From contig NZ_FPJG01000006.1 in NCBI RefSeq assembly GCF_900119165.1, positions 4,650,001 through 4,714,000 on the forward strand: a DNA stretch of 64,000 bases, read 5' to 3'. This document shows positions 18,546-43,924 of the stretch, piece by piece. The notes below the pieces were generated by a model. It did not search any database and had not been told where the DNA came from. It saw only the letters and a program-made list of their open reading frames with translations. The DNA is from Amycolatopsis australiensis. Its GTDB lineage: Bacteria > Actinomycetota > Actinomycetes > Mycobacteriales > Pseudonocardiaceae. Positions within the stretch are counted from its first letter, which is position 1. Every line of letters starts with the position of its first letter. The translations under genes were made by a program, and so were the position numbers.

Positions 18546-18728
18546 CCCGGCATCCGAAAACAAAGTGACGGACGGCGCCCGGACCGGGTGACCGCCGCCG
18601 GTTCCGGAAACGCAGCGTGTCCGGACCGGCGTCCTTGATCCGCCATGCGGACGCTCACAAATGCCGTTTCGTGTTGCATGATGATTACTCCCCCGATTCG
18701 CGGGGCGTGTCGTGAGGGAGGACCTGAC

Positions 18729-18905
18729 ATGGGACAGGCGCGGGGCGAAGTCACCACGAGCATGGTCGATCTGAGTGCGTTTTCCCTGGCCGATCTGCGC
18801 GACAGCGACGACCCGGCGTTGCTGCGCTCGCTGCGGCTGGTCGCCGGGCGCGCCGAATGCAGCCGGACCGGGGTGCTGCAGAACCAGGCGCCGGACGCGC
18901 GCTGA
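18729..18905 (+). CDS. FxsA-like RiPP precursor peptide
   Basis: A 58-residue peptide with a strong GGGAGGA ribosome site before ATG 18729. The segment MVDLSAFSLADLRDSDDPAL followed by LRSLRLVAGRAE follows the conserved leader pattern of FxSxx-COOH (FxsA) precursors, whose leaders read roughly VDL-x-x-x-SL-x-x-L-R-x-x-DD-x-x-L-x-x-ALR. The C-terminus is different: CSRTGVLQNQAPDAR instead of FxSxx, so the core probably lies around VLQNQ. It sits 27 bp upstream of the HExxH protein gene and is its likely substrate. Upstream (18546-18728) no gene is seen. Confidence 0.65.
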   Translation: MGQARGEVTTSMVDLSAFSLADLRDSDDPALLRSLRLVAGRAECSRTGVLQNQAPDAR

Positions 18906-18932
18906 GCCGGGGGTCAGGGAACCCACGACCCG

Positions 18933-20717
18933 ATGCTGGACACCCACCGGGTGTCACTGACGAGCCTCGACGCGATGGCCGCGGGCAGAAGTGACGCGGC
19001 CGTCGTCGAGCAGCTCAGGCAAGCCGACCGCAGCAGGCGGCTGACCCTGCTGCGAGCCGTGCTCGACGCCGCCGCCGAGCGGGATCCCGCGATGTCCCCG
19101 CTGCCGCCGCTCGACGAGGCCTGGACGTTGCTGATCGAGGCGCAGCAACGGGATCCGGCCGCGACCGACCGCGTCCTCGCGCACCCGCACACGGGCCTGT
19201 GGGCGGCGGACGTCCTGCAGCGGCTGGCGAAAGGCGGTACCGGGCCGGACGATCCGCCGTTGTGGGCCGACCTCGGCGGCCTGCACCGGCTGGCCACCGC
19301 CGCGGCGATCCGCGCCGGGCACGACTTCCGGTCGCGGGTCCCGGTGTGGCGCGGCCGGCTCATGCTGCCCACGCTCGGCCTCGCCGAGGTCCGCAGCCAC
19401 CGCGAATGGGATTTCGCGCAGGTGCACGCCGAACGCGGTCACATCCTCGTGCGCGGCCCGTCCGGCAGCGTGCAGCTGCCCGACGACAGCTCGGCCGACG
19501 GTCCGGGCTGGTTCGCCCTGCGCACGCTGCGCGTGGCCGGCGGTGAGCTGTGGCTCGACGACATCGACCCGTACCGCGAATTCGCCGGCCCGCTGCCACC
19601 GCATCGGCTCGACACCGCGGAAGTCGCGCGGTGGGCGGAAAGCCTGGACGAGACCTGGCGATTGCTGACCGCGCACCACCCCGCGATCGCGGCGGAGCTG
19701 GCCGCCGGGCTGACCACGCTGGTGCCGCGGGCGGCGGTCGACCGGTTCACGCCGTACAGCGCGTCGCACAACGACGTCTTCGGTTCCCTGGTGTTGTCCC
19801 CGCCACCGGAACCGGTGACGTTCGCGGCGACGCTGGTGCACGAATTCCAGCACAGCAAGCTGGGGGTGCTGTTGGTTCTCGTGGACCTGCTGGATCCCGC
19901 GGCGGACAACGAATCGCCGCGGCTCTACGCGCCTTGGCGCGACGATCCCCGACCGGCGTCCGGCCTCCTGCACGGCGCGTTTTCCTTTCTGGGCGTGACG
20001 GCGTTCTACCGCGAGCACTATCCGGTGGAAAAAGGACTGGCGGCCCGGGCCGCGCAATTCGAATTCGCGTACCGGCGCGAGCAGACCGCCCGCGCGGTGA
20101 GCACGCTGCTCGCGGACGCGGTTCCGTCGGCGCTGGGCAGGCGGTTCCTGACCGCGGCGGGGGAGCGGCTGCGCGAGTGGGGCACCGAACCGCTGCCGGG
20201 TGAAATCGTGCGCGCGGCCGGGTGGGCGAACCTCGACCACCACCTGTCGTGGCGGCTGCGCCACCTGCGCGTCGCGGACGACGTGGTGGGGGAGCTGGCC
20301 GAAGCGTGGCTGCGGAACCGCCCGTGCCCGCCGGTTTCGCGGGAGCCGCCGAGCCTGCGGCCGGCGGCGCGCCCGGCCGGCGCGGCGAGGCTGGCGCTCA
20401 CCCGGACGTGGCTGACGGACCCGGACCTGTACGACATTTACCGCGCCGAGCCGGAGCTGGCGATGGCGGAGATCAGCGGGGCGTCGGCAGCGGATCTGGC
20501 TTTGGTGGACGGCGACACCCGCACGGCGGCGGAGCTGTACCGGCAACAGCTCGCGACGGCGCCGGACGCACCGGCGGTCTGGGCGGGATTGGCGGTGGCG
20601 ACCGGACATCCGGCGTTGCTGGCTCATCCGGAGCTGGTGCACGCGGTGCACCGCGAGATCCGGCTGCGGCGGGGCGGCGTCCCGAACCCGGATCAGCTGG
20701 CACGCTGGCTGAGCTGA
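18933..20717 (+). CDS. Stand-alone alpha-ketoglutarate HExxH-type peptide beta-hydroxylase
   Basis: A 594-residue protein. The metal motif HEFQH is at residues 303-307 (VHEFQHSKLG), followed by the family-typical YAPWRDDPRP (W335, R336, likely co-substrate binding) and GLLHGAFSF (H347, likely third metal ligand). This matches the 'HEXXH' domain that is usually fused to the FxsB radical SAM protein in FxsA systems; that domain has been shown to hydroxylate peptide beta-carbons using alpha-ketoglutarate. Here no radical SAM domain is present in the protein or nearby, so only hydroxylation is expected. The C-terminal part has TPR-like helices (AAELYRQQLATAPDAPAVWAGL). Likely substrate: the peptide encoded just upstream. 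Confidence 0.75.
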   Translation: MLDTHRVSLTSLDAMAAGRSDAAVVEQLRQADRSRRLTLLRAVLDAAAERDPAMSPLPPLDEAWTLLIEAQQRDPAATDRVLAHPHTGLWAADVLQRLAKGGTGPDDPPLWADLGGLHRLATAAAIRAGHDFRSRVPVWRGRLMLPTLGLAEVRSHREWDFAQVHAERGHILVRGPSGSVQLPDDSSADGPGWFALRTLRVAGGELWLDDIDPYREFAGPLPPHRLDTAEVARWAESLDETWRLLTAHHPAIAAELAAGLTTLVPRAAVDRFTPYSASHNDVFGSLVLSPPPEPVTFAATLVHEFQHSKLGVLLVLVDLLDPAADNESPRLYAPWRDDPRPASGLLHGAFSFLGVTAFYREHYPVEKGLAARAAQFEFAYRREQTARAVSTLLADAVPSALGRRFLTAAGERLREWGTEPLPGEIVRAAGWANLDHHLSWRLRHLRVADDVVGELAEAWLRNRPCPPVSREPPSLRPAARPAGAARLALTRTWLTDPDLYDIYRAEPELAMAEISGASAADLALVDGDTRTAAELYRQQLATAPDAPAVWAGLAVATGHPALLAHPELVHAVHREIRLRRGGVPNPDQLARWLS

Positions 20718-20777: not shown

Positions 20778-23700
20778 TCAGATCTGCATCGGGTCGATGT
20801 CGCAGTTCGCCCGGTGGTTGAACTGCGCGTCCGCCGTCGCCGGGTGCTCCGGGCCGAGAACCTGCCGCAGCCGCTGGACCGCGTTCAGCTGGAGGCTGTC
20901 CGCCTCCTCCGTCCGGCCCAGCCGCCGCAGGTCCAGCGCCTGGTTGACCAGCAGCGCCAACGAAGACGGGTGGTCCGGGCCCAGCACGCGCTCGGACCGC
21001 TCCAGCGTCGCCTGGTCGAGCTGGTACGCGCGTTCGTGGTCACCGGATTCGGCCAGGTCGCTCGCGTAGTTCGTCGCGCAGACCAGGGTGAACGGGTGGT
21101 CTTCGCCCAGCGCCTCGGTCATGTCCGCGAGCGCCCGCTCGTCCAGCGCGCGGGCTTGCTCGACCTGCTCGGCCGAACCGAGCAGGCGCAGCGTGACGGC
21201 CAGGTTCGTCGCCGCGGCCACGCTGAACGGGTGCTTTTCGCCCCACGTCGCTTCGTAGAGCCCCTTGACGTGCTCGCCGAGCCGGCGGGCCTCGGCCAGG
21301 TTGCCGTCCTGGCGGTGCTCGATCGACAGGTCCATCGTCGCCGACATCGCGTCGGGGTGGGACTCGCCGTACTTCGCGACCAGCCCGTCCGTCGCCTCCA
21401 TGGCGAGGGTCAGCGCCTTCTTGTCGCGGTGCAGGCCCGCTTTGCGGTAGGCGATCGCGAGGTTCTTGATGGCCGACAGCGTCATCGGGTGCCTGCTGCC
21501 CAGCTGCGCCCGCATCCGGCGGACCGTGTCCTCCTGCTCGGCGCGCGCCCGCAGGTAGTCGCCCGTCTCGCGCAGGTCCACCGACCAGTTGTCCAGCGTC
21601 AGCAGCGTGTGCCGGTGGTCCGGGCCCAGGACGGTCTGCTTGCGTTGCGCCGTCCGCTCGTCCAGGTCCCGTGCCGCGGCGAACTCGCCGACCAGGCGCA
21701 GGCTCAGCGCGTAGTTGTTGGCCGCCGCCAGCGTGTCCGGGTCGTCTTCGCCGAAGCGGTCCAGCGCGCTCAGGTAGGCGAACTCGTTCATCCGGCGCGC
21801 CCGCTCGAAATCGCCCTTCGCGCGCAGGTCCGAGGCGACGCCGTGCATGGTGAGCAACGTTTCTTCGTGCGTCTCGCCGAGCGTTTCCTGCATCAGGGCG
21901 AGGGTCCGCTCCGCGACCGCGCGGCCTTCCTCGAACCGGCCGAGCGCGCGGAGCATGCGTCCCCACCACCGCGAAACGACCAGCGTGTCGGGGTGCTTCT
22001 CGCCGAGCTTCTCGGTCCAGTACTGCGCGTAGTCCTGCGCCATTTCCAGCGCGCCGGCCGGGTCGCCGAAGGCGAAGAGGTAGTTGACCGCGTTGATCGC
22101 CATCCGGCGCACCCAGCGGTCGGTGCAGTTGCGCGCGTCGACGGCGCGGATGTGCGGCAGCAGTTCGGCGTAGCGCGTCCAGTAGTCGACCGAGTCGGGC
22201 TGCTTGGGGTCGCGGTTGGCGAGCAGCAGGTGCGCGGTGTGGCGCACCCGTTCCTGGTCTTCGGGCGTGAGCTTGTTGCGCAGCACCAGCTGTACGAGCC
22301 GGTGCAGCTGAAGCGTGTCGCTGCGGTGGTCGATCTTCGCGAGGCTGTAGCGGGTGATTTCGCGGATGGCCCGCCCCAGCTGGATCGGGTCGCCGAGGGT
22401 CTGCTCGAGCGCTTCCGAGGTCGGGACGTTGCGGACGCCGCTGAACATCGCCCGCGGGATCGGCTCGGGCGAGAAGAAAGCGCACACCTCGAGCAGTTCC
22501 AGCGCGCCGCGGTTCTCGTCGCGAAGGCGGTCCAGCGAAACGTTCCACGCGGCCTCGACCGCGACGTCGTAGTCCGCCGGGGGCCGCGACTGGAGCAGTT
22601 CGGTGCGCTTGTTTTCGAACAGCTGCAGGTATTCGTCGGTCGCCATGCCCGTCTCGGCCCGCCAGGCCGCGGCCTGCTCGACGGCCAGCGGGAGGTCGCC
22701 GAGCACGGTGGCGAGCCGGTCGGCGTCCTCGTCGCCGAGATCGCGGTTGCGCCGCTGCAGCAGCTCCCGGCTTTCCGTGCGGCGGAAGACATCCACCTCG
22801 ACCGCCTGCGCCACCTCCGACCACTGCGGGTTCCGGGAGGTGACGAGGATGTGGCCCTCACCCCGCCGCGGCCAGAACTCGCGCACGTCCTCCGGGCGGT
22901 CGGCGTTGTCGAACACGAGCAGCCAGCGGCGATACGGTTCGCCGCTGCCCAGCGTCTCCAGCACGGCGGGCACCGCGGTGTCCACCGACTGCTCCACCGG
23001 AAGGTCGAGCCGTTTGGCCAGTTTGACCAGCGACGCCTGGATTTCCGAAGGGTTTTCCGAGGGAATCCACCAGATCAGGTCGTATTCTTCGGCGTGTCGG
23101 TAGACGTACTCGACCGCGATCTGGGATTTGCCGATGCCGCCCATCCCGTGCAGTGCCCCCGGCAGCACGGCGGTGCGGGTGGACTTGGAAAGTTCACCGT
23201 GCAGGGCGCGAAGCAGATCTCCGCGGCCGATGAAGTTGACGTTGCGCAGCGGAACGCCGCCCCAGACGGCAGGCTGCTGGCCGGAGCTGCGGATCTCAGT
23301 GCCCGGCTCCGAACTGGTGGTGGTCACTGCGGAAATCCCTCGAGGTGGCTTGATCGGTTCAGGATGCAGATCGGATGCGGCGGACCCTATCTCATCCTCA
23401 ATCGTCCTCGAAGCTGGGTCGTTACGGGACTTCTGAAAGCGTTCCAAGGCATCACCCAATCGGTTGGCGCGTCGGGCGTAAGGCCCCGACAAGGCTCTCA
23501 GAACGTCACGTTGAACAGATAGCAAAGGTTCGGTGCGCGAGGTAACCACCGGTAGAGTGGCTTCGTCGGGAGCCGCCAGCGTGCCGCGCAGGTCGGCCAC
23601 CGCGGGTTCGTGCGGGCCCAGGACGTCTTCGACCACCCGCTGGACGCGCGCGGTGTCGGCGCGGGAAACGGTCGCCAGCAGCCGGCGGCGCAGCCCGGGC

Positions 23701-24980
23701 GCGAAATCGTACTCCACCGGCGGTTTTTCCCCGCCCGCGTTCGCCGGCACCCGGTGCAGCAGCCGTCCCATGTGGATTTCCGCCAGGTGCGCGGGATGCG
23801 CCTGCGGCATCAGGGTGCCGTGCACCGCCTGCATGACTCGCAGCGTCAGCGGGGCCGCCGCGAGGAGCCCGGCCAGGCGGATCGCGGGTGAGGTTCCGGT
23901 GGCGAGGAATCGATCCAGCCTTTCCGTCGGGGAAAGCGCTTCTCCGGCGTCACCCGTGCCGTCGCCGGTGAGTTCGTCCGGCCGCGGCGGGACGAGCACC
24001 GGAAGCCGCACGCCGGTGGTGCCGGAGACGAGGTCCGCCCACCGCCGCAGGTGGCGCGGGGCCAGCTCCAGCACGGGAATCGGGTTCGCCGTCCCGGGCA
24101 GCACGCCGCGCAGGGACCGGGGCGCCACGCGCACGCCCGTCCAGTTCCAGCGTTCACCCGGAAGGAGGTGGAAGAAGGAGACGTGGCAGGTTTTCGCCCA
24201 CAGCGTCAGGATCCGGAACATCGACCCGCTGCGCCACGCGGCGCCGACGCCGTCGCTGAGCACGATGACGAGGCGCCGCCCCGTCGGATCCGCCAGCTGC
24301 GCCGGCTCGCACGCGGTGCCCGGCGTGGTTTCCACGGCCCGCACGACCGGATCGTCGGTGTCCACCGAAACCGTCTTGACGTCGCTGAACGCGCCCTGCC
24401 GTTCCAGCAGGGCGCGGAACGCGCGCGTGGTCCGATCCCAGAGCACCATGGAAGAACCGCGGTCCACGACGAGCACGACCTCGAACGCGTGGCCGCGCGA
24501 GGGCCGGTGCACCGGCAGCCAGACCCGGGTCTCCGCCGCGGCGACCGCGGTTTCCTCCTCGTCCAGCTCGGTCCGGTCCTTGAGCCGGACGAGCCGGTTC
24601 AGCGGGCGCAGCGCCTTCGCCAGACCTCGGGGCAGGCTCGGCGGCACCGCGCGGATCGGCGGCGCCGCCGCGGGTTTGCGCGGCCGCCGCGGCACCGGGA
24701 CCGGTTCGAGCGGCACCGGCGGTGGTTCGGGATGGCCGCCGCCCGGCCGGACCGGCTCGGGGCGCGCGGGCGGCGGGTGCTCGACGCGGGGTTCCGGCGG
24801 CTCGGGTGGTGGCTCCGGTGGCTCCGGTGGCGCTTGGGGCGGGGGCGGCGGCTCGGGCGGCGGGCCCGGTTCCGGGCGCGGCGGCTCGCTCGCCGCGATG
24901 CGGGCGGCGAGCCAGACCGCGTCGGCGATCTCGTCCGCGTTGAGCGCCTCGGTGGGGAGGCGGTCGACCGGGTCGGCCAT
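20778..24980 (-). CDS. vWA/SAV_2336-NB-ARC-TPR protein (FxsT-like)
   Basis: A 1400-residue multidomain protein. After a proline-rich linker (about 33-110) comes a SAV_2336-type domain with vWA features: a MIDAS-like VVDRGSSM (D173, S176, S177) and LVIVLSDG near 240. An NB-ARC NTPase follows, with Walker A GMGGIGKS (residues 612-619) and Walker B LLVFDNAD near 690. The last 450 residues are TPRs of the kinesin-light-chain type, each with a GxxHPxT/S signature (such as LGEKHPDTL, LGPDHRHTL, LGPEHPATA). The layout matches the 'FxSxx-COOH system TPR protein' group and STAND-type signalling NTPases. It lies 4 bp from the MoxR gene in the same operon. Confidence 0.85.
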   Translation of the reverse strand: MADPVDRLPTEALNADEIADAVWLAARIAASEPPRPEPGPPPEPPPPPQAPPEPPEPPPEPPEPRVEHPPPARPEPVRPGGGHPEPPPVPLEPVPVPRRPRKPAAAPPIRAVPPSLPRGLAKALRPLNRLVRLKDRTELDEEETAVAAAETRVWLPVHRPSRGHAFEVVLVVDRGSSMVLWDRTTRAFRALLERQGAFSDVKTVSVDTDDPVVRAVETTPGTACEPAQLADPTGRRLVIVLSDGVGAAWRSGSMFRILTLWAKTCHVSFFHLLPGERWNWTGVRVAPRSLRGVLPGTANPIPVLELAPRHLRRWADLVSGTTGVRLPVLVPPRPDELTGDGTGDAGEALSPTERLDRFLATGTSPAIRLAGLLAAAPLTLRVMQAVHGTLMPQAHPAHLAEIHMGRLLHRVPANAGGEKPPVEYDFAPGLRRRLLATVSRADTARVQRVVEDVLGPHEPAVADLRGTLAAPDEATLPVVTSRTEPLLSVQRDVLRALSGPYARRANRLGDALERFQKSRNDPASRTIEDEIGSAASDLHPEPIKPPRGISAVTTTSSEPGTEIRSSGQQPAVWGGVPLRNVNFIGRGDLLRALHGELSKSTRTAVLPGALHGMGGIGKSQIAVEYVYRHAEEYDLIWWIPSENPSEIQASLVKLAKRLDLPVEQSVDTAVPAVLETLGSGEPYRRWLLVFDNADRPEDVREFWPRRGEGHILVTSRNPQWSEVAQAVEVDVFRRTESRELLQRRNRDLGDEDADRLATVLGDLPLAVEQAAAWRAETGMATDEYLQLFENKRTELLQSRPPADYDVAVEAAWNVSLDRLRDENRGALELLEVCAFFSPEPIPRAMFSGVRNVPTSEALEQTLGDPIQLGRAIREITRYSLAKIDHRSDTLQLHRLVQLVLRNKLTPEDQERVRHTAHLLLANRDPKQPDSVDYWTRYAELLPHIRAVDARNCTDRWVRRMAINAVNYLFAFGDPAGALEMAQDYAQYWTEKLGEKHPDTLVVSRWWGRMLRALGRFEEGRAVAERTLALMQETLGETHEETLLTMHGVASDLRAKGDFERARRMNEFAYLSALDRFGEDDPDTLAAANNYALSLRLVGEFAAARDLDERTAQRKQTVLGPDHRHTLLTLDNWSVDLRETGDYLRARAEQEDTVRRMRAQLGSRHPMTLSAIKNLAIAYRKAGLHRDKKALTLAMEATDGLVAKYGESHPDAMSATMDLSIEHRQDGNLAEARRLGEHVKGLYEATWGEKHPFSVAAATNLAVTLRLLGSAEQVEQARALDERALADMTEALGEDHPFTLVCATNYASDLAESGDHERAYQLDQATLERSERVLGPDHPSSLALLVNQALDLRRLGRTEEADSLQLNAVQRLRQVLGPEHPATADAQFNHRANCDIDPMQI

Positions 24981-24983
24981 CGT

Positions 24984-26000
24984 TCAGTCGGCTCCCCGGA
25001 CGTTGAGCCGGCGCCACAGCGTGTCGCGGAGCACCTCCCAGTTCGCGTCGTGCTGGTGCGCGCCGGACGTGGTCAGGTGCAGCGCGTTGAGCAGCTGGTC
25101 GTTGGCGAGGCCGCCCTCCTGCCCGCTGCTGGCGAGGAATTCGTGGATCAAGTCGTCGCTGCGGGCCGGCACGTCGCGGAAGTGCGCCGCCACCATGCCG
25201 ACGAGCTGCTCGAACCCGGGCTGCGGCAGGTCGAGGCGGAGGCAGCGGCGCAGGAACGCGGGCGGGAAGTCGCGTTCGCCGTTGCTCGTCACCACCACGA
25301 CCGGGAACGCGCGGCACCGCACGTGCCCGTCCCGCACCGTCGCGCGGCCGCCGCGGTCGTGCGTGAAGACGGTGACTTCCGGCTGGGTGGCGGCGATCCG
25401 GGCGAGCGGCTGGATCTCGAAGTCGCCGTCTTCGAACACCGCGAGCAGGTCGTTGGGCAGGTCGATGTCCGACTTGTCCAGCTCGTCGACGAGCAGGACG
25501 CGTGGCCGGTCGTGGGGCAGCAGCGCGGTGCCGAGCGGGCCGAGCCGGACGAACCCGCCGATGTCCCCGCCTTCCTCGGTCGCCGCGGCCTGGACGCGGC
25601 CGATGGCGTCGTAGGTGTAGAGCCCGTCCCGCGAGACCGTGCGGCTGCTGATCGGCCAGCGCAGCACCGGGCCCAGCCCGAGCTCACGCGCGATCTTGTA
25701 GGCCAGGCTGGACTTCCCGGTGCCGGGATTGCCGGTGACCAGCAGCGGACGCCGCAGGTAGAGCGCCGCGTTGACGGTCAGGACCTCTTTGGGCGTCGCC
25801 TCCCGCGCCGAGGCGACGGACGGTTCCCCGAGCCGTCGCACGAATTCGGCGTCCGACGACGGCGGGACCGGCAGGGCCGGGCCGCCGTCGAAGGTGCGCC
25901 AGCTGGGCGGTGCGGGCAGCTCGGGGGCGTCCTCGCCGTCGGGCGGCGGCAGCCCGTGACCGCGGTAGACGCACCATGGCGGGATCTCGGCACCGCTCAT
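24984..26000 (-). CDS. MoxR-type AAA+ ATPase
   Basis: A 338-residue AAA+ ATPase of the MoxR/dynein-related group. Walker A is GNPGTGKSS (K96), Walker B RVLLVDELDKSD near residue 170, sensor 1 region VVVVTSNGERDFP, arginine finger region FLRRCLRLDLP. ATG 26000 overlaps the stop of the VMAP gene (ATGA). In VMAP three-part conflict systems a MoxR ATPase works with a vWA protein and VMAP to process or switch an effector complex; here the vWA part is in the next gene downstream. Confidence 0.88.
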   Translation of the reverse strand: MSGAEIPPWCVYRGHGLPPPDGEDAPELPAPPSWRTFDGGPALPVPPSSDAEFVRRLGEPSVASAREATPKEVLTVNAALYLRRPLLVTGNPGTGKSSLAYKIARELGLGPVLRWPISSRTVSRDGLYTYDAIGRVQAAATEEGGDIGGFVRLGPLGTALLPHDRPRVLLVDELDKSDIDLPNDLLAVFEDGDFEIQPLARIAATQPEVTVFTHDRGGRATVRDGHVRCRAFPVVVVTSNGERDFPPAFLRRCLRLDLPQPGFEQLVGMVAAHFRDVPARSDDLIHEFLASSGQEGGLANDQLLNALHLTTSGAHQHDANWEVLRDTLWRRLNVRGAD

Positions 26001-27478
26001 CGGGCGGGCACCTCCTCGATCGGGGCCGCGGGCGGATCCTGCGGCTCGACGGGCCGTTCCGGGTCGTCCCACAGCAGCGAAACCCGGCTGCCCACATGGG
26101 AGTCGGGCCGCGCCGCCTGCCGGGCGCGGGTCCGCAGGAGGCGCAGGTGCTCGACGAGTTCGGGCAGGACGTCACGCAGGGACTTGATCTCCGCCTCGAA
26201 CGCCGAGCGGGCGGATTCGGTGCGGTGCCAGATCATCACCGGGATCCCGGTCCGGACCCCGACGAGCACCTCGCCCGGGTCCGGGCCTTCCGGCACCGAA
26301 CGCAGCACGAGCGACACGACTTTCTTCTGCTCGGCCAGCTTGGCGTCGAGCGCGGTCAGGTGCCGCCGCTTCGCGCCGTCGCTCCACAGCCAGTGCTCTT
26401 CGGGGGTGGTCAGGCCGGCGGGCACCTTCTTCAGCAGATCCCAGCGGCGCCGCCATTCCCGGTGCCAGCGCGGCGAACGCGCGCGGTCGAGGCTGCGGAC
26501 GACGACCTGGTAGTGCAGGCCGAGCGGGCGGGGCAGCGGGCTGTCCGCCTCGAGGTCCCACTGGTCGACGGGCAGGTTCAGCAGCGCGTACGGCAGGAGG
26601 AACTCGATCCGGATGGCCGAGGCGTCCCGCGCCCAGCCGGTCTCGGCCTTCGCGACCAGTTCGGCGACGTGCGCGCGGACGGCGTCGAGGTCACCGGTGA
26701 ACGGCTCGCCGCGCCGCGGCCGCCAGCCGGCGGGATCGTTGTGCCGCCAGTGCACGACGACGAGCAGGCCGGGATCGAGCAGGTCCGGTTCGATGCGGAC
26801 GACGAGGTAGGCGACGACCGCCGCCGGCGTCGCGGGTTCGGTGGCCTGCGCCAGCCGGACGGCGCTGATCTGCTCGGTCAGGCCGAGCCGCGCGGCCTGC
26901 CGGTCGTTCCAGTCGCGCAGCGCTTCGGCGCGCTGCTCGTCCGCGGCGGCGGCGAGGTATTCGACGAACAGCAGCAACGGCGGAACGCCGTCGGGCTGCG
27001 CGTTCATCCGTTCGAGGGTGGCGAGCGCGTCAGCCGGCCGGTGGTCGGCGGAAGTGAGCTCGGCGGCGGGCCCGGCGGCGGCCCGCACGAGCTCGGCGAG
27101 CCTGCTGCTGGGATTTTCGCCCAGGAGGGTGAGCAGTTCCTGCCGATCGTATTCGGTGACGAGATCGAGAGCGGCCATGTCGTCGACGGCGGCGCGGGCG
27201 CGTCGCACGGGAATGGACCCGGGCTCCATTTGCTCGACGGCGTCGACGAAGGCACTGAGCGCGCGCGGGTGCTGCCGCCGGCAGGCCTGCACGATGCCGA
27301 TCAGGCTGGCCCGCGTGGTGGGCAGTTCTTCGACGACGAGGGGAACCCCGAGGTGGTCGGCGAGCAGGTCGAGACAGAGCCGCCGGCTGCCGGGATCGCG
27401 CAGGGACGGGATCTGCTCCAGGCAGTCGATGAGAAAGCCCAGGGAGCTGGGGAAGTCACCCCCGTTCCACGACGTCAC
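25997..27478 (-). CDS. EAD-VMAP protein (vWA-MoxR-associated protein)
   Basis: A 493-residue protein. The N-terminus has two small helical domains of effector-associated type (LGFLIDCLEQIPSLRDPGSR, then ALSAFVDAVEQMEPGS), each about 80 residues. The C-terminal half matches the VMAP-C domain, with FLLPYALLNLPVDQWDLE and the RSPRWHREWRRRWDLLKK region near residues 330-360. In known VMAP systems the EADs recruit effectors that carry the same EAD, while VMAP couples to vWA and MoxR partners. It is the first gene of the operon running to 20778. No catalytic residues of a protease are evident. Confidence 0.75.
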   Translation of the reverse strand: MTSWNGGDFPSSLGFLIDCLEQIPSLRDPGSRRLCLDLLADHLGVPLVVEELPTTRASLIGIVQACRRQHPRALSAFVDAVEQMEPGSIPVRRARAAVDDMAALDLVTEYDRQELLTLLGENPSSRLAELVRAAAGPAAELTSADHRPADALATLERMNAQPDGVPPLLLFVEYLAAAADEQRAEALRDWNDRQAARLGLTEQISAVRLAQATEPATPAAVVAYLVVRIEPDLLDPGLLVVVHWRHNDPAGWRPRRGEPFTGDLDAVRAHVAELVAKAETGWARDASAIRIEFLLPYALLNLPVDQWDLEADSPLPRPLGLHYQVVVRSLDRARSPRWHREWRRRWDLLKKVPAGLTTPEEHWLWSDGAKRRHLTALDAKLAEQKKVVSLVLRSVPEGPDPGEVLVGVRTGIPVMIWHRTESARSAFEAEIKSLRDVLPELVEHLRLLRTRARQAARPDSHVGSRVSLLWDDPERPVEPQDPPAAPIEEVPAR

Positions 27479-29585: not shown

Positions 29586-31865
<2,280 letters not shown>

Positions 31866-31887
31866 CTACTTCCTTCCGAGCCGGCGA

Positions 31888-32313
31888 TCATGAAGAGGTT
31901 CGGGCGGCCGAGCAGTCGGGGCAGGTGCCCCAATAGACGACCTCCGCCTGGTCGATCACGAAACCGTGGTCGTCCGAGGCGGTCAGGCACGGTGTGTGGC
32001 CGACGGCGCAGTCGACGTCCGCGATCGCACCGCACGTCCGGCACACGACGTGGTGGTGGTTGTCCCCGACCCGGGACTCGTACCGGGCGGTGGCGCCGGC
32101 GGGCTGGATGCGCCGCACCAGGCCGGTGTCGGTGAGCGCCCGCAGCACGTCGTAGATCGTCTGGTGCGACACCGTCGGGTGCTCGGCCCGCACCAGCGCG
32201 ATCACCGTCTCGGTGTCGACGTGCGGGTGGTCGCGCAGCGCGGCGAGCACGGCCAGCCGGGGCCGCGTCACCCGCAACGAGGCCGCCCGCAGCTGCGCCT
32301 CGAAGTCGGTCAT
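31888..32313 (-). CDS. furA: Fur family regulator FurA
   Basis: A 141-residue Fur-family repressor. The winged helix is at residues about 10-80 (LRVTRPRLAVLAALRDHPHV, TVSHQTIYDVLRALTDTGLV). Metal sites are visible in HHHVVCRTCG and the C-terminal CPDC pair. FurA proteins repress their own furA-katG operon and release it under peroxide stress. I chose ATG 32313 because the upstream GTG (32325) overlaps the -10 box and would precede the transcript start; the mRNA is probably leaderless. Confidence 0.95.
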   Translation of the reverse strand: MTDFEAQLRAASLRVTRPRLAVLAALRDHPHVDTETVIALVRAEHPTVSHQTIYDVLRALTDTGLVRRIQPAGATARYESRVGDNHHHVVCRTCGAIADVDCAVGHTPCLTASDDHGFVIDQAEVVYWGTCPDCSAARTSS

Positions 32314-32323
32314 CACGTCCAGC

Positions 32324-32353
32324 ACCCTAGAGCGCTTCTCTGGAATGAGTCAA
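32324..32353 (-). promoter_or_regulatory. furA-katG promoter
   Basis: On the minus strand, TTGACT (32353-32348) and TAGGGT (32329-32324) are 18 bp apart. The transcript would start about 7 bp on, at or next to the furA ATG (32313). The stretch from the -35 box, TTGACTCATTCCAGAGAAG, resembles the A/T-rich FurA-binding element found at mycobacterial and Streptomyces furA promoters as I recall them. Confidence 0.7.
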
Positions 32354-41632: not shown

Positions 41633-42796
41633 TCAGGGCCGGAACCCGGCGAGGGGGTTCTCGTCGCAGGCGCGCTCCGGCGGACGGCGCATCCCGATGG
41701 TCACCGGGACCGGACGGCGGTGGCTGTGGTCGAGCGACGGCTTCGGGACGGCGGTGACACCGGCCAGCGCGCGTTCGCCGTGGCCGCGGACGCATTCCGG
41801 ATCGGGGCCGTCGAGCGGGAGGCCGGTGAAGAACTTCGCGGCCATGCAGCCGCCGCGGCAGGCGTCGAACGCCGAACACGACGTGCACGCCCCGCCGCTC
41901 TGCGGGCCGCGCAGCTCGGTGAACAGCGCGGATTCGCGCCACACCCGGGTGAATCCGCCGCCGTCGCGGACGTTGCCGGCGAGGAAGGTGTCGTGGATGG
42001 CGAACGGGCAGGCGTAGACGTCGCCGACCGGGTCGACCAGGCACACGACGCGTCCGGCGCCGCACAGGTTGAGCCCGGGCAGGCCGCCGTCGCCGTAGCC
42101 GGCGAGGTGGAAGAACGAGTCGCCGGTCAGGACGTTTTCGCCGTGCGCGACCAGCCAGTCGTACAGCTCCCGCTGCTGGGTGGCGGTCGGGTGCAGCTCG
42201 TCCCAGGTGTCGGCGCCGCGGCCCGACGGGCGCAACCGGGTGATCCGCAGCTGGGCGCCGTACCGGTCGGCGATCGCCTGGAACGCGTCGAGCTGGCCGA
42301 CGTTGTGCCGGGTCAGCACCACGGAGATCTTGAAGTTCCCGAAGCCCGCGTCGGAAAGGTGGGTCATGGCGCGGATCGCGGTGGCGTACGAGCCGGGACC
42401 GCGGACGTGGTCGTTGACCTCCGCGGTGGCGCCGTCGAGGGAGATCTGCACGTCGACGTAGTCGCTCGCGGCCAGCCGTTTCGCGGCATCCTCGGTGATC
42501 TTGACACCGTTGGTGGAGAACTTGACCCCGACGTGGTGCTCGGTGGCGTAGCCCACGAGTTCCCAGAAGTCCGGGCGGACGGTCGGTTCGCCGCCGCCGA
42601 TGTTGACGTAGAAGACCTGCATGCGCTCGAACTCGTCGATCAGCGCCCGGCATTCCGCAGTGGACAGTTCGCGCGGGTCGCGGCGGCCGGAGGAGGAAAG
42701 GCAGTGCACGCAGGAGAGATTGCAGGCGTAGGTCAGTTCCCAGGTGAGGCAGATGGGGGCGTCGAGCCCGTACTGGAATTCGTCCACAAGGGACAT
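41633..42796 (-). CDS. mftC: Mycofactocin radical SAM maturase MftC
   Basis: A 387-residue radical SAM/SPASM enzyme. The [4Fe-4S]-SAM motif is CNLSCVHC (C25, C29, C32); FYVNIGGGEPTVRPDF follows. The SPASM cysteines include LCGAGRVVCLVDPVGDVYAC and CTSCSAFDACRGGC near residues 310-323. MftC oxidatively decarboxylates the C-terminal Tyr of MftA and crosslinks it to the preceding Val. Its ATG overlaps the mftB stop by one base (TGATG). Confidence 0.96.
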   Translation of the reverse strand: MSLVDEFQYGLDAPICLTWELTYACNLSCVHCLSSSGRRDPRELSTAECRALIDEFERMQVFYVNIGGGEPTVRPDFWELVGYATEHHVGVKFSTNGVKITEDAAKRLAASDYVDVQISLDGATAEVNDHVRGPGSYATAIRAMTHLSDAGFGNFKISVVLTRHNVGQLDAFQAIADRYGAQLRITRLRPSGRGADTWDELHPTATQQRELYDWLVAHGENVLTGDSFFHLAGYGDGGLPGLNLCGAGRVVCLVDPVGDVYACPFAIHDTFLAGNVRDGGGFTRVWRESALFTELRGPQSGGACTSCSAFDACRGGCMAAKFFTGLPLDGPDPECVRGHGERALAGVTAVPKPSLDHSHRRPVPVTIGMRRPPERACDENPLAGFRP

Positions 42797-43089
42797 CAGC
42801 GGCTCCTCGGGCGGATCGTCCGCGACGCGGCCAGCGCGGCGAGGGCGGTGCGGTAGCGGGGCAGCTCGGCCGGGGTGACCCCGGCGGCGGCGCAGGCCGC
42901 GCGGGCGGTCGGCTGCCCGGTCAGTCCCCGGACCACGGCGAGCATGGTCCGGTTCTTCAGAAACGACAGCCGGCGGGTGCCGAAGTGGTAGAGCAGGGCG
43001 CCGAACCGCTCCGGCCGGATGGACACCCGGTCGTCCAGTTCCCAGGCGCCGTCGAGGTCGAACTCCGCCGGGGTGTCCTCAGTAGACAC
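42796..43089 (-). CDS. mftB: Mycofactocin chaperone MftB
   Basis: A 97-residue peptide-recognition (RRE/PqqD-like) protein. It has FDLDGAWELDDRVSIRPERF and the FGALLYHFGTRRLSFLK segment conserved in MftB. It binds the MftA leader and presents it to MftC. GTG 43089 lies inside the 3' end of mftA (11-bp overlap), so the two are translationally linked. Confidence 0.92.
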   Translation of the reverse strand: MSTEDTPAEFDLDGAWELDDRVSIRPERFGALLYHFGTRRLSFLKNRTMLAVVRGLTGQPTARAACAAAGVTPAELPRYRTALAALAASRTIRPRSR

Positions 43090-43177
43090 CGCACATGCCG
43101 TCGATCGACACTTCTTCGACCAGGAGCTCCTCGGCCAGGGCTTCGTCCGGTTCGGTGGTCTGCGGGTTCTCGCTCAT
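43079..43177 (-). CDS. mftA: Mycofactocin precursor peptide MftA
   Basis: A 32-residue peptide, too short for routine gene calls. ATG 43177 follows an AAAGGAG ribosome site. The leader is acidic (EPDEALAEELLVEEVS) and the C-terminus is IDGMCGVY, the invariant end of MftA; the terminal Val-Tyr becomes the redox core of mycofactocin. It is the first gene of the operon and divergent from mftR. Confidence 0.96.
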   Translation of the reverse strand: MSENPQTTEPDEALAEELLVEEVSIDGMCGVY

Positions 43178-43202
43178 CCTGGCTCCTTTGGCAGAGATGA
43201 TT

Positions 43203-43220
43203 TTGACACCGAGTGTCGAA
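43203..43220. promoter_or_regulatory. MftR operator candidate
   Basis: TTGACACCGAGTGTCGAA contains the inverted repeat GACAC-CGA-GTGTC (43205-43217) in the 57-bp gap between the divergent mftA and mftR start codons. MftR is known to repress mft promoters and to release DNA on binding long-chain acyl-CoA. This palindrome is the only clear one in the gap. TTGACA within it could double as a -35 box for mftR. Confidence 0.65.
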
Positions 43221-43234
43221 TACCGGGGAGAGTA

Positions 43235-43924
43235 ATGTCACCGCGTGTCGGCAAGCAAGGTCCGCGACGAAAAGGCACCCGGATGACCGATGGCACGCTC
43301 GCCCGGCCCGCGAACCGCCGCGGCCGCCCGCCGGGCACGAGCGCACGGGAACTGGAGGTCGCGGCGCTGCGGCTGTTCACCGAACAGGGGTTCCACGAGA
43401 CGACGGTCGACCAGATCGCCGCCGCGGCCGGGGTCAGCAGGCGCACGTTCTTCCGGTACTACGACGCGAAGGCGGACGTCCTCTGGAACGAGTTCGACAC
43501 CGAGGTCGCGACGATCCGCACGCTGCTCGCCGGGATGCCGCCGGACCTGCCGGTGCTGGAGGCGGTGCGCCGGGCGGTGCTGGCGGCCAACCACTACCGC
43601 GCCGAAGACGTGCCGGAGCTGCGGACCCGGATGACGCTGCTGAGCTCGGTGCCGGAGCTGGCCGCGAGCGCGGCGGTCCACTACGACGCGTGGGAACGGG
43701 CGGTCAGCGCGTATGTCGCCCGCCGGTCCGGCCAGCCGGAGGACTCGCTGTACCCGCTGGTGGTGGGCCGCGCGGTACTGGCGGCCTGCCGGGCGGCGTA
43801 CGACCGGTGGTCCGCGCGGGCGGACGCCGACCTGGTGGTGTACCTGGACGCGGCGTTGCGCGCGCTGGCGGCGGGGCTGGCCGACGACGTGCTCGGCCCG
43901 GAGCCGGACCCGGTGCGGACCTGA
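43235..43924 (+). CDS. mftR: Mycofactocin locus TetR regulator MftR
   Basis: A TetR regulator of about 229 residues. The helix-turn-helix is in ALRLFTEQGFHETTVDQIAA with VSRRTFFRYYDAKADVLWNE. ATG 43235 has GGGGAGA upstream; ATG 43283 (MTDGTLARP) is a second choice that would give 213 residues. It is divergent from mftA with a palindrome between them, matching the usual mftR position. It probably represses mftA-D and itself. Confidence 0.88.
   Translation: MSPRVGKQGPRRKGTRMTDGTLARPANRRGRPPGTSARELEVAALRLFTEQGFHETTVDQIAAAAGVSRRTFFRYYDAKADVLWNEFDTEVATIRTLLAGMPPDLPVLEAVRRAVLAANHYRAEDVPELRTRMTLLSSVPELAASAAVHYDAWERAVSAYVARRSGQPEDSLYPLVVGRAVLAACRAAYDRWSARADADLVVYLDAALRALAAGLADDVLGPEPDPVRT

What the first reader, a model, noticed from the sequence alone, without database searches (positions are those of the whole stretch)
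18729..20717. FxsA-like peptide paired with a stand-alone HExxH peptide hydroxylase, no radical SAM
Seen: a 58-residue peptide with an FxsA-type leader and, 27 bp on, a 594-residue HExxH protein with HEFQH at 303-307, PWR and LLHG motifs. Known: this HExxH domain is usually fused to the FxsB radical SAM enzyme, where the fused proteins form cyclophanes and beta-hydroxylate peptides. Inference: this is a minimal RiPP pathway that only hydroxylates, a simplified branch of the FxsA systems.
Basis: partly seen in the sequence, partly recalled or inferred. Interest (0 to 1): 0.85.

Follow-up and report, generated by a model that had tools for sequence, protein, structure and literature searches.

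The report
Peptide-hydroxylase cassette beside conflict-system genes
A soil bacterium carries a tiny peptide gene next to a gene for an iron enzyme that probably adds oxygen to that peptide, and both sit beside genes thought to act in bacterial self-defence; the arrangement is a known but little-studied kind, here with a new sort of peptide ending.

Summary
In detail: a 58-aa peptide gene (18729-18905) lies 27 bp before a 594-aa aKG-HExxH gene (18933-20717), with HEFQH at 303-307. The enzyme passes TIGR04267 (156 bits, cut-off 40). The peptide matches only the leader part of TIGR04268, below cut-off, and lacks the FxSxx end. The genome has no FxsB over cut-off. A radical-SAM-free zincin plus peptide beside such a system was described in 2020 as the 'RxD' and 'acidic' peptide-processing types, the zincin then taken for a protease. 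The peptide precedes the enzyme in 97 of 98 radical-SAM-less relatives; the other is cut by its contig end. The window belongs to a 7-member clade (SH-aLRT 98) whose peptides share V[LM]xN plus exactly six residues, not among the four types named in that paper's text. Most likely the enzyme beta-hydroxylates this core, probably at Asn52, and the product serves the neighbouring conflict ATPase. Chemistry, site and role are inferred.

The parts
18654..18683 (+). promoter-like element: CTCACA, 17 nt, CATGAT (within TGCATGATG 18675-18683)
   Evidence: read; TGCATGATG occurs once in the window, 0.05 expected; CATGATG is present in 46 of 97 upstream stretches and 0 of 97 control stretches taken inside the HExxH gene; not tested as a promoter
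18729..18905 (+). 58-aa precursor-like peptide: FxsA-like leader, core ECSRTGVLQNQAPDAR; Asn52 invariant in the clade
   Evidence: TIGR04268 22.1 bits, below cut-off 28; coding signature; core is V[LM]xN plus six residues in 7 of 7 clade members
18933..20717 (+). stand-alone aKG-HExxH-type protein, 594 aa
   Evidence: TIGR04267 156.1 bits, cut-off 40; H303, E304, H307, R336, D338, R340 invariant in 108 of 108 rows; similar to 22nu/22ob and to ChlH 8s5f
20778..24980 (-). 1400-aa SAV_2336 N-terminal (vWA-like)/NB-ARC/TPR protein, convergent with the pair
   Evidence: NF040586 908.1 bits (cut-off 300), NF041121 335.1 bits (cut-off 200); Pfam NB-ARC and TPR; the vWA label is read from the sequence and PMC7159879, no Pfam vWA match
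24984..26072 (-). MoxR-like AAA ATPase, 362 aa
   Evidence: Pfam AAA and AAA_5 over cut-off; the MoxR label comes from the context and PMC7159879
25997..27478 (-). EAD2 - VMAP-M0 - VMAP-C protein, 493 aa
   Evidence: Pfam EAD2 79.3, VMAP-M0 94.8, VMAP-C 160.9 bits, all over cut-off

Best explanation
This is the peptide-modification module of a VMAP ternary conflict system. The stand-alone HExxH protein is an Fe(II)/alpha-ketoglutarate-dependent peptide hydroxylase that recognises the FxsA-like leader of the 58-aa peptide and beta-hydroxylates its C-terminal core, most likely at the invariant Asn52 (V-L-Q-N) and perhaps at the neighbouring Gln51 and Gln53. No cyclophane is made first, because the genome has no FxsB. 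The modified peptide acts as ligand, signal or toxin for the convergently encoded vWA-NB-ARC-TPR/MoxR/VMAP proteins. Shown here: the genes and their families, the intact motifs, the conserved pairing and synteny, the absence of FxsB, the conserved core. Inferred: leader recognition, hydroxylation, its site, and the link between peptide and ATPase.
For: TIGR04267 156 bits against a cut-off of 40. HExxH plus R336, D338, R340 invariant in 108 of 108 rows. HExxH and the PWRxDxRP and GLLH stretches align with ChlH 8s5f, whose fused relative hydroxylates Asp and His; stand-alone relatives PflC/PosC hydroxylate Gln and Asn, and PesO hydroxylates Pro. Peptide next to the enzyme in 97 of 98 radical-SAM-less rows. 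V[LM]xN with exactly six following residues in 7 of 7 clade peptides. In all 7 clade loci the pair converges on the NB-ARC-TPR, AAA and VMAP genes. NCBIfam itself calls the neighbour the FxSxx-COOH system TPR protein. FxsB is absent from the own genome and from 48 of 50 homologue-bearing genomes of the genus.
Against: No activity data. ChlH is reported to need a preinstalled cyclophane, which cannot form here without FxsB. The active-site geometry and alpha-ketoglutarate binding could not be tested: structure prediction is off. Identity to characterised enzymes is low (ChlH 38.7 bits). Two of the 7 clade genomes, G148 and G382, hold an FxsB elsewhere, so action in trans is not excluded there. 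G406, 47% identical in the enzyme, has an upstream peptide ending FGGYST rather than V[LM]xN. Asn52 is a guess from conservation in 7 sequences.
Confidence: 0.6

Rival explanations
1. The enzyme hydroxylates the Q-N-Q tract and also cuts the backbone oxidatively at Ala54, leaving a peptide amide and removing the C-terminal residues, as PflC and PosC do at Gln-run/ARMD.
For: The core reads LQNQ-APDAR: amide side chains followed by Ala and a short tail. Five of 7 clade members have Ala directly after the N-x pair. PflC/PosC hydroxylate a Gln run and cleave at the Ala of ARMD; small residues there favour cleavage.
Against: Two of 7 clade members have Val or Gln at that place, which by the PosC data would favour hydroxylation without cleavage. 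No close sequence relation to PflC/PosC was tested.
Confidence: 0.15
2. The enzyme is a zinc-type peptidase that cuts the peptide and releases its C-terminal part, as PMC7159879 proposed in 2020 for this class.
For: HExxH is the zincin motif; the 2020 paper calls the class metallopeptidases; PflC without leader interaction can hydrolyse a truncated substrate.
Against: TIGR04267 is now named an aKG-HExxH-type peptide beta-hydroxylase. Passages on characterised members (ChlH, PflC/PosC, PesO, BipH) report oxidation with the intact substrate.
Confidence: 0.15
3. The enzyme is catalytically inactive and only binds the peptide, like the 'inactivated beta-hydroxylase extension' of some FxsBH proteins (NF040587).
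For: It matches NF040587 at 139.5 bits over residues 28-372.
Against: That match is below the family's cut-off of 225, and HExxH, R336, D338 and R340 are invariant in 108 of 108 rows.
Confidence: 0.05

Closest known systems
VMAP ternary conflict systems with radical-SAM-free 'peptide-processing' modules, RxD and acidic types (PMC7159879; passages read)
   Same: Zincin-like protein plus small peptide gene, no radical SAM gene, next to vWA/MoxR/VMAP genes, with the AP-ATPase (NB-ARC) and TPRs on the vWA protein.
   Different: The peptide ends in V[LM]xN plus six residues, neither RxD nor acidic. The paper treats the zincin as a protease; the family is now a hydroxylase family. Its source data were not seen, so such peptides may be listed there.
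FxSxx-COOH (FxsA)/FxsB/HExxH cyclophane systems; ChlB/ChlH (8s5f; Morishita et al. 2024, not held, known here only through papers that cite it)
   Same: aKG-HExxH domain; distantly similar leader; NB-ARC-TPR neighbour (8 of 9 FxsB-type loci).
   Different: No FxsB in the genome, no FxSxx end, so no cyclophane; NB-ARC on one ORF with the vWA-like part here, in only 1 of 9 FxsB-type loci.
Stand-alone aKG-HExxH enzymes PflC/PosC (PMC12636437: abstract and passages), PesO (PMC13060819: abstract and passages), BipH (PMC12707348: passages) and BpmH (as cited in PMC12636437)
   Same: HExxH hydroxylases of ribosomal peptides without a fused radical SAM domain.
   Different: The described pfl, pes and bip clusters hold MNIO, transporter or other tailoring genes; the passages seen mention no VMAP system. 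Sequence similarity to them was not tested here.

Membership tests
aKG-HExxH-type peptide beta-hydroxylase (TIGR04267) | profile match over the curated cut-off | tested here: met
   156.1 bits, cut-off 40
aKG-HExxH-type peptide beta-hydroxylase (TIGR04267) | intact HExxH and the PWRxDxR stretch shared with ChlH | tested here: met
   alignment; H303, E304, H307, R336, D338, R340 in 108 of 108 rows; the roles of the Arg and Asp residues were not verified
aKG-HExxH-type peptide beta-hydroxylase (TIGR04267) | same fold and iron/alpha-ketoglutarate site geometry | not testable with these tools
   structure prediction switched off
aKG-HExxH-type peptide beta-hydroxylase (TIGR04267) | Fe(II)/alpha-ketoglutarate-dependent hydroxylation of a peptide | not testable with these tools
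   needs expression and mass spectrometry
FxSxx-COOH (FxsA) RiPP system | FxsA-type leader over the TIGR04268 cut-off | tested here: not met
   22.1 bits, cut-off 28; only profile positions 1-31 of 44 matched
FxSxx-COOH (FxsA) RiPP system | C-terminal FxSxx core | tested here: not met
   peptide ends VLQNQAPDAR
FxSxx-COOH (FxsA) RiPP system | FxsB radical SAM/SPASM enzyme | tested here: not met
   no match over cut-off in the genome; the radical SAM gene in the window is MftC
VMAP ternary conflict system | VMAP-C protein with an AAA/MoxR ATPase | tested here: met
   VMAP-C 160.9 bits, VMAP-M0, EAD2; AAA_5
VMAP ternary conflict system | vWA domain protein | tested here: inconclusive
   NF041121 335 bits and a vWA-like VVLVVDRGSSM stretch by reading; no Pfam vWA match
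radical-SAM-free peptide module, RxD/acidic layout of PMC7159879 | zincin plus small peptide beside AP-ATPase-TPR fused to the vWA protein, no radical SAM gene | tested here: met
   the vWA label carries the caveat above
[quoted passage not shown]
   core VLQNQAPDAR; V[LM]xN plus six in 7 of 7 clade peptides

The most novel reading that the evidence does not exclude
An oxygen-, iron- and alpha-ketoglutarate-gated peptide signal drives a bacterial NB-ARC (NLR-like) conflict ATPase: the enzyme hydroxylates the Q-N-Q tract, perhaps trimming it to an amide at Ala54, and the NB-ARC/TPR protein reads the modified state as a go or no-go signal. The V[LM]xN clade would then be a fifth type of peptide module, built on Asn chemistry rather than on a cyclophane.
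Probability: 0.15. Interest if true: 0.85.

Novelty: new variant of a known kind. Interest (0 to 1): 0.5.

Why it matters
In the 390 family genomes searched, 93 of the 148 with a homologue of the enzyme have no FxsB. I found no experimental study of this radical-SAM-free class in the held open-access library (searches). A two-gene substrate-enzyme pair is easy to reconstitute. It would show whether an aKG-HExxH enzyme can act on an FxsA-like-leader peptide without a preinstalled cyclophane, and would give a chemical handle on what VMAP/NB-ARC conflict systems sense.

Tried and rejected
Rejected: that the radical SAM gene at 41633-42796 (-) is part of the pathway; it is the mycofactocin maturase, TIGR03962 653 bits. 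The other weak own-genome match, L001 (25.5 bits), was not looked at further. Rejected: that the upstream MFS, TetR, AKR and SDR genes belong to the system; of the other six clade loci only G124 (L042, the same place as L123) has matches to them. I did not search those flanks for other exporters or proteases. Rejected: that the LLHG His is an obligatory iron ligand; it is Gln in 49 of 108 rows including all 9 FxsB-type ones, and Thr in one. PADLOC gave only weak IetA hits to the AAA protein. Looked for and not found: an EAD2 partner of the VMAP protein among six ORFs scanned between 27672 and 33577.

Limits and dropped rows. The genome-contig scan kept the best 80 of 149 relatives, so FxsB-type loci are under-sampled. 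The tree is a quick LG+G4 search with long-branch warnings. From the tree I dropped duplicates L012 (= window), L014 (= L042) and L043 (= L040); L065 is cut by its contig and unlabelled. One search found five more homologues at E 1e-100 in 394 genomes of the class; they are not in the tree or the counts. Of these L145, L146 and L147 have upstream peptides ending FGGYST, GFSKQGKLS-like and FGGYRESCKA, and L148 and L149 showed none in that scan; radical SAM genes near them were not searched. Homologues in L138-L141 are also outside the tree. Thirteen radical-SAM-less rows (L024, L027-L029, L031-L036, L038, L039, L041) were seen with only 1.5 kb of flank; of their 13 genomes only G045 has FxsB. 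L046, counted as radical-SAM-less, has an FxsBH-type gene 2.8 kb downstream of its HExxH gene. The radical SAM scan was a motif search; 7 of 9 FxsB-type loci were confirmed by profile, L111 and L114 were not run. L078 has 8 kb flanks and no NB-ARC-TPR match. Ten of 97 peptides fit none of my four C-terminal classes. The own-genome TIGR04268 search scored 150 of 737 candidates.

Full report
What is there. The peptide ORF (18729-18905, 58 aa) and the HExxH ORF (18933-20717, 594 aa) are as described, 27 bp apart. The enzyme scores 156.1 bits for TIGR04267 (cut-off 40). The peptide scores 22.1 bits for TIGR04268 (cut-off 28), over profile positions 1-31 of 44 only. The own genome holds one TIGR04267 match and no FxsB over cut-off. 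The radical SAM gene inside the window is the mycofactocin maturase.

The reading frame is real. Against the three closest relatives the peptide differs mostly at third codon positions: 15 of 21 base changes against G091, 13 of 23 against G124 and 19 of 36 against G148. The start codon is shared and follows a GAGGGAGGA ribosome-binding-like stretch.

The neighbourhood. Converging on the pair are a 1400-aa protein with an NF041121 (SAV_2336 N-terminal) part, NB-ARC and TPRs, scoring 908 bits for NF040586 'FxSxx-COOH system tetratricopeptide repeat protein', then an AAA ATPase and an EAD2/VMAP-M0/VMAP-C protein. The vWA label of the first is by reading; Pfam gave none. This is the VMAP ternary conflict system of PMC7159879 (passages read). 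That paper reports that about 20% of actinobacterial VMAP systems carry a small precursor and a zincin-like protein, that a radical SAM gene is added when the peptide is of FxSxx type, and that the AP-ATPase is fused to the vWA protein when the peptide is of RxD or acidic type. The window has that second layout but a different peptide end.

FxsB across the family. Of 390 family genomes, 148 have a homologue of the enzyme at E 1e-10 and 57 have FxsB over cut-off. Both are present in 55; 93 have the homologue without FxsB; in the genus 2 of 50 homologue-bearing genomes have FxsB. Of the 7 genomes of the window's clade, G148 and G382 have FxsB, on places far from the pair (G148, Mb away on the same contig) or on another contig (G382); the other five have none.

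Tree. The 108-row set gives a tree in which 98 radical-SAM-less rows stand apart (SH-aLRT 96) from 9 FxsB-type loci and L065, which is cut by its contig. The label needs one change. Seven of the 9 were checked by profile and all 7 pass TIGR04269. Three of the 9 show FxSxx-like peptide ends on reading (L052, L061, L111); the other six showed no clear candidate in that scan.

Peptides. A profile built from upstream ORFs found the peptide in 93 of 111 loci and 7 more were recovered in a second look. After removing duplicates this is 97 of 98 radical-SAM-less rows; the last, L097, lies at a contig start. By C-terminus: RxD/E-like 73, V[LM]xN plus six residues 7, SWHH/D 4, GGHxS 3, other 10. The V[LM]xN peptides are exactly the 7-row clade of the window (SH-aLRT 98). 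From the leader to the C-terminus they align without gaps, with Asn invariant and exactly six residues after it. The text of PMC7159879 names four types, FxSxx, RxD, acidic and FtsH-associated; V[LM]xN is none of these, but its source data were not seen.

Synteny. Of 89 radical-SAM-less loci with extended flanks, 82 have an NB-ARC-TPR match, 76 on the same ORF as a match to residues 131-460 (the vWA-like part) of the window protein, 58 have a MoxR match, 33 a VMAP match, and 32 all three within the stretch held; 17 of 18 of the fetched 12-20 kb regions have all three. Of the 7 misses, L075, L077, L091, L097, L101 and L113 have the HExxH ORF within 2.5 kb of the contig's edge; L078 has full flanks. 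Of 9 FxsB-type loci, 8 have NB-ARC-TPR but only 1 has it on one ORF with the vWA-like part. This agrees with the published split. In the window's clade all 7 loci have the full convergent set, while the window's other flank (MFS, TetR, AKR, SDR) is matched only in G124. So the module runs from the peptide to the VMAP gene.

Enzyme. H303, E304, H307, R336, D338 and R340 are invariant in 108 of 108 rows. Among solved chains the matches are 22nu/22ob (137 bits, titled a radical SAM core domain-containing protein) and ChlH 8s5f (39 bits), both sharing HExxH and the PWRxDxRP stretch. Geometry could not be tested, since structure prediction is off.

Mechanism. Characterised relatives hydroxylate Asp and His (ChlH), Gln and Asn (PflC/PosC) and Pro (PesO). 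The residues conserved in the cores here, Asn in V[LM]xN, Asp or Glu in RxD/E, His in GGHxS and SWHH, are mostly of the same kinds. That they are the targets is inference. So is the last step, that the product acts on the neighbouring conflict ATPase; it rests on the conserved synteny and on the proposal of PMC7159879. A bolder reading is that the Q-N-Q/Ala end is treated as PosC treats its Gln-run/ARMD end.

Verdict. The pair is a member of a described but, as far as my searches show, untested class, with a core type not named in that description, and not a free-standing minimal pathway.

Noticed in passing
window 18654-18683 (+): A CATGATG element lies upstream of the peptide in 46 of 97 relatives and in 0 of 97 control stretches inside the HExxH gene (a coding control, and the rows are related). 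In the window a CTCACA lies 17 nt before it, so it may be a promoter or operator shared by these modules.
   Followed up: partly
window 41633-42796 (-): Mycofactocin radical SAM maturase MftC (TIGR03962, 653 bits); a TetR-like ORF lies nearby at 43019-43924 (+) by reading.
   Followed up: partly
window 29586-32325 (-): Peroxidase-domain protein of 759 aa next to a Fur-family regulator, probably a catalase-peroxidase pair.
   Followed up: no
L022, L030, L036, L038, L140 upstream of HExxH: Another core type in radical-SAM-less Amycolatopsis-family loci: peptides ending SWHH or SWHD.
   Followed up: no
L049, L051, L054 upstream of HExxH: Peptides ending SSxGGHxS in Solihabitans, Lentzea and Kutzneria; L109 of the same tree group ends SSSVAGSQPS.
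   Followed up: no
L064 5280-7579 (+): Between the NB-ARC-TPR gene and the peptide this Streptomyces locus has an alpha/beta-hydrolase-like and a caspase-like ORF, by reading; PMC7159879 mentions such a pairing.
   Followed up: no
L046 12553-14754 (-): FxsB (582.8 bits) fused to an extension of the inactivated beta-hydroxylase type (NF040587 303.9 bits), 2.8 kb from a radical-SAM-less HExxH pair.
   Followed up: no
HExxH protein residue 347 (LLHG His): His in 58 of 108 homologues, Gln in 49, Thr in 1; His in all 7 V[LM]xN rows, Gln in all 9 FxsB-type rows. It may track substrate type.
   Followed up: partly
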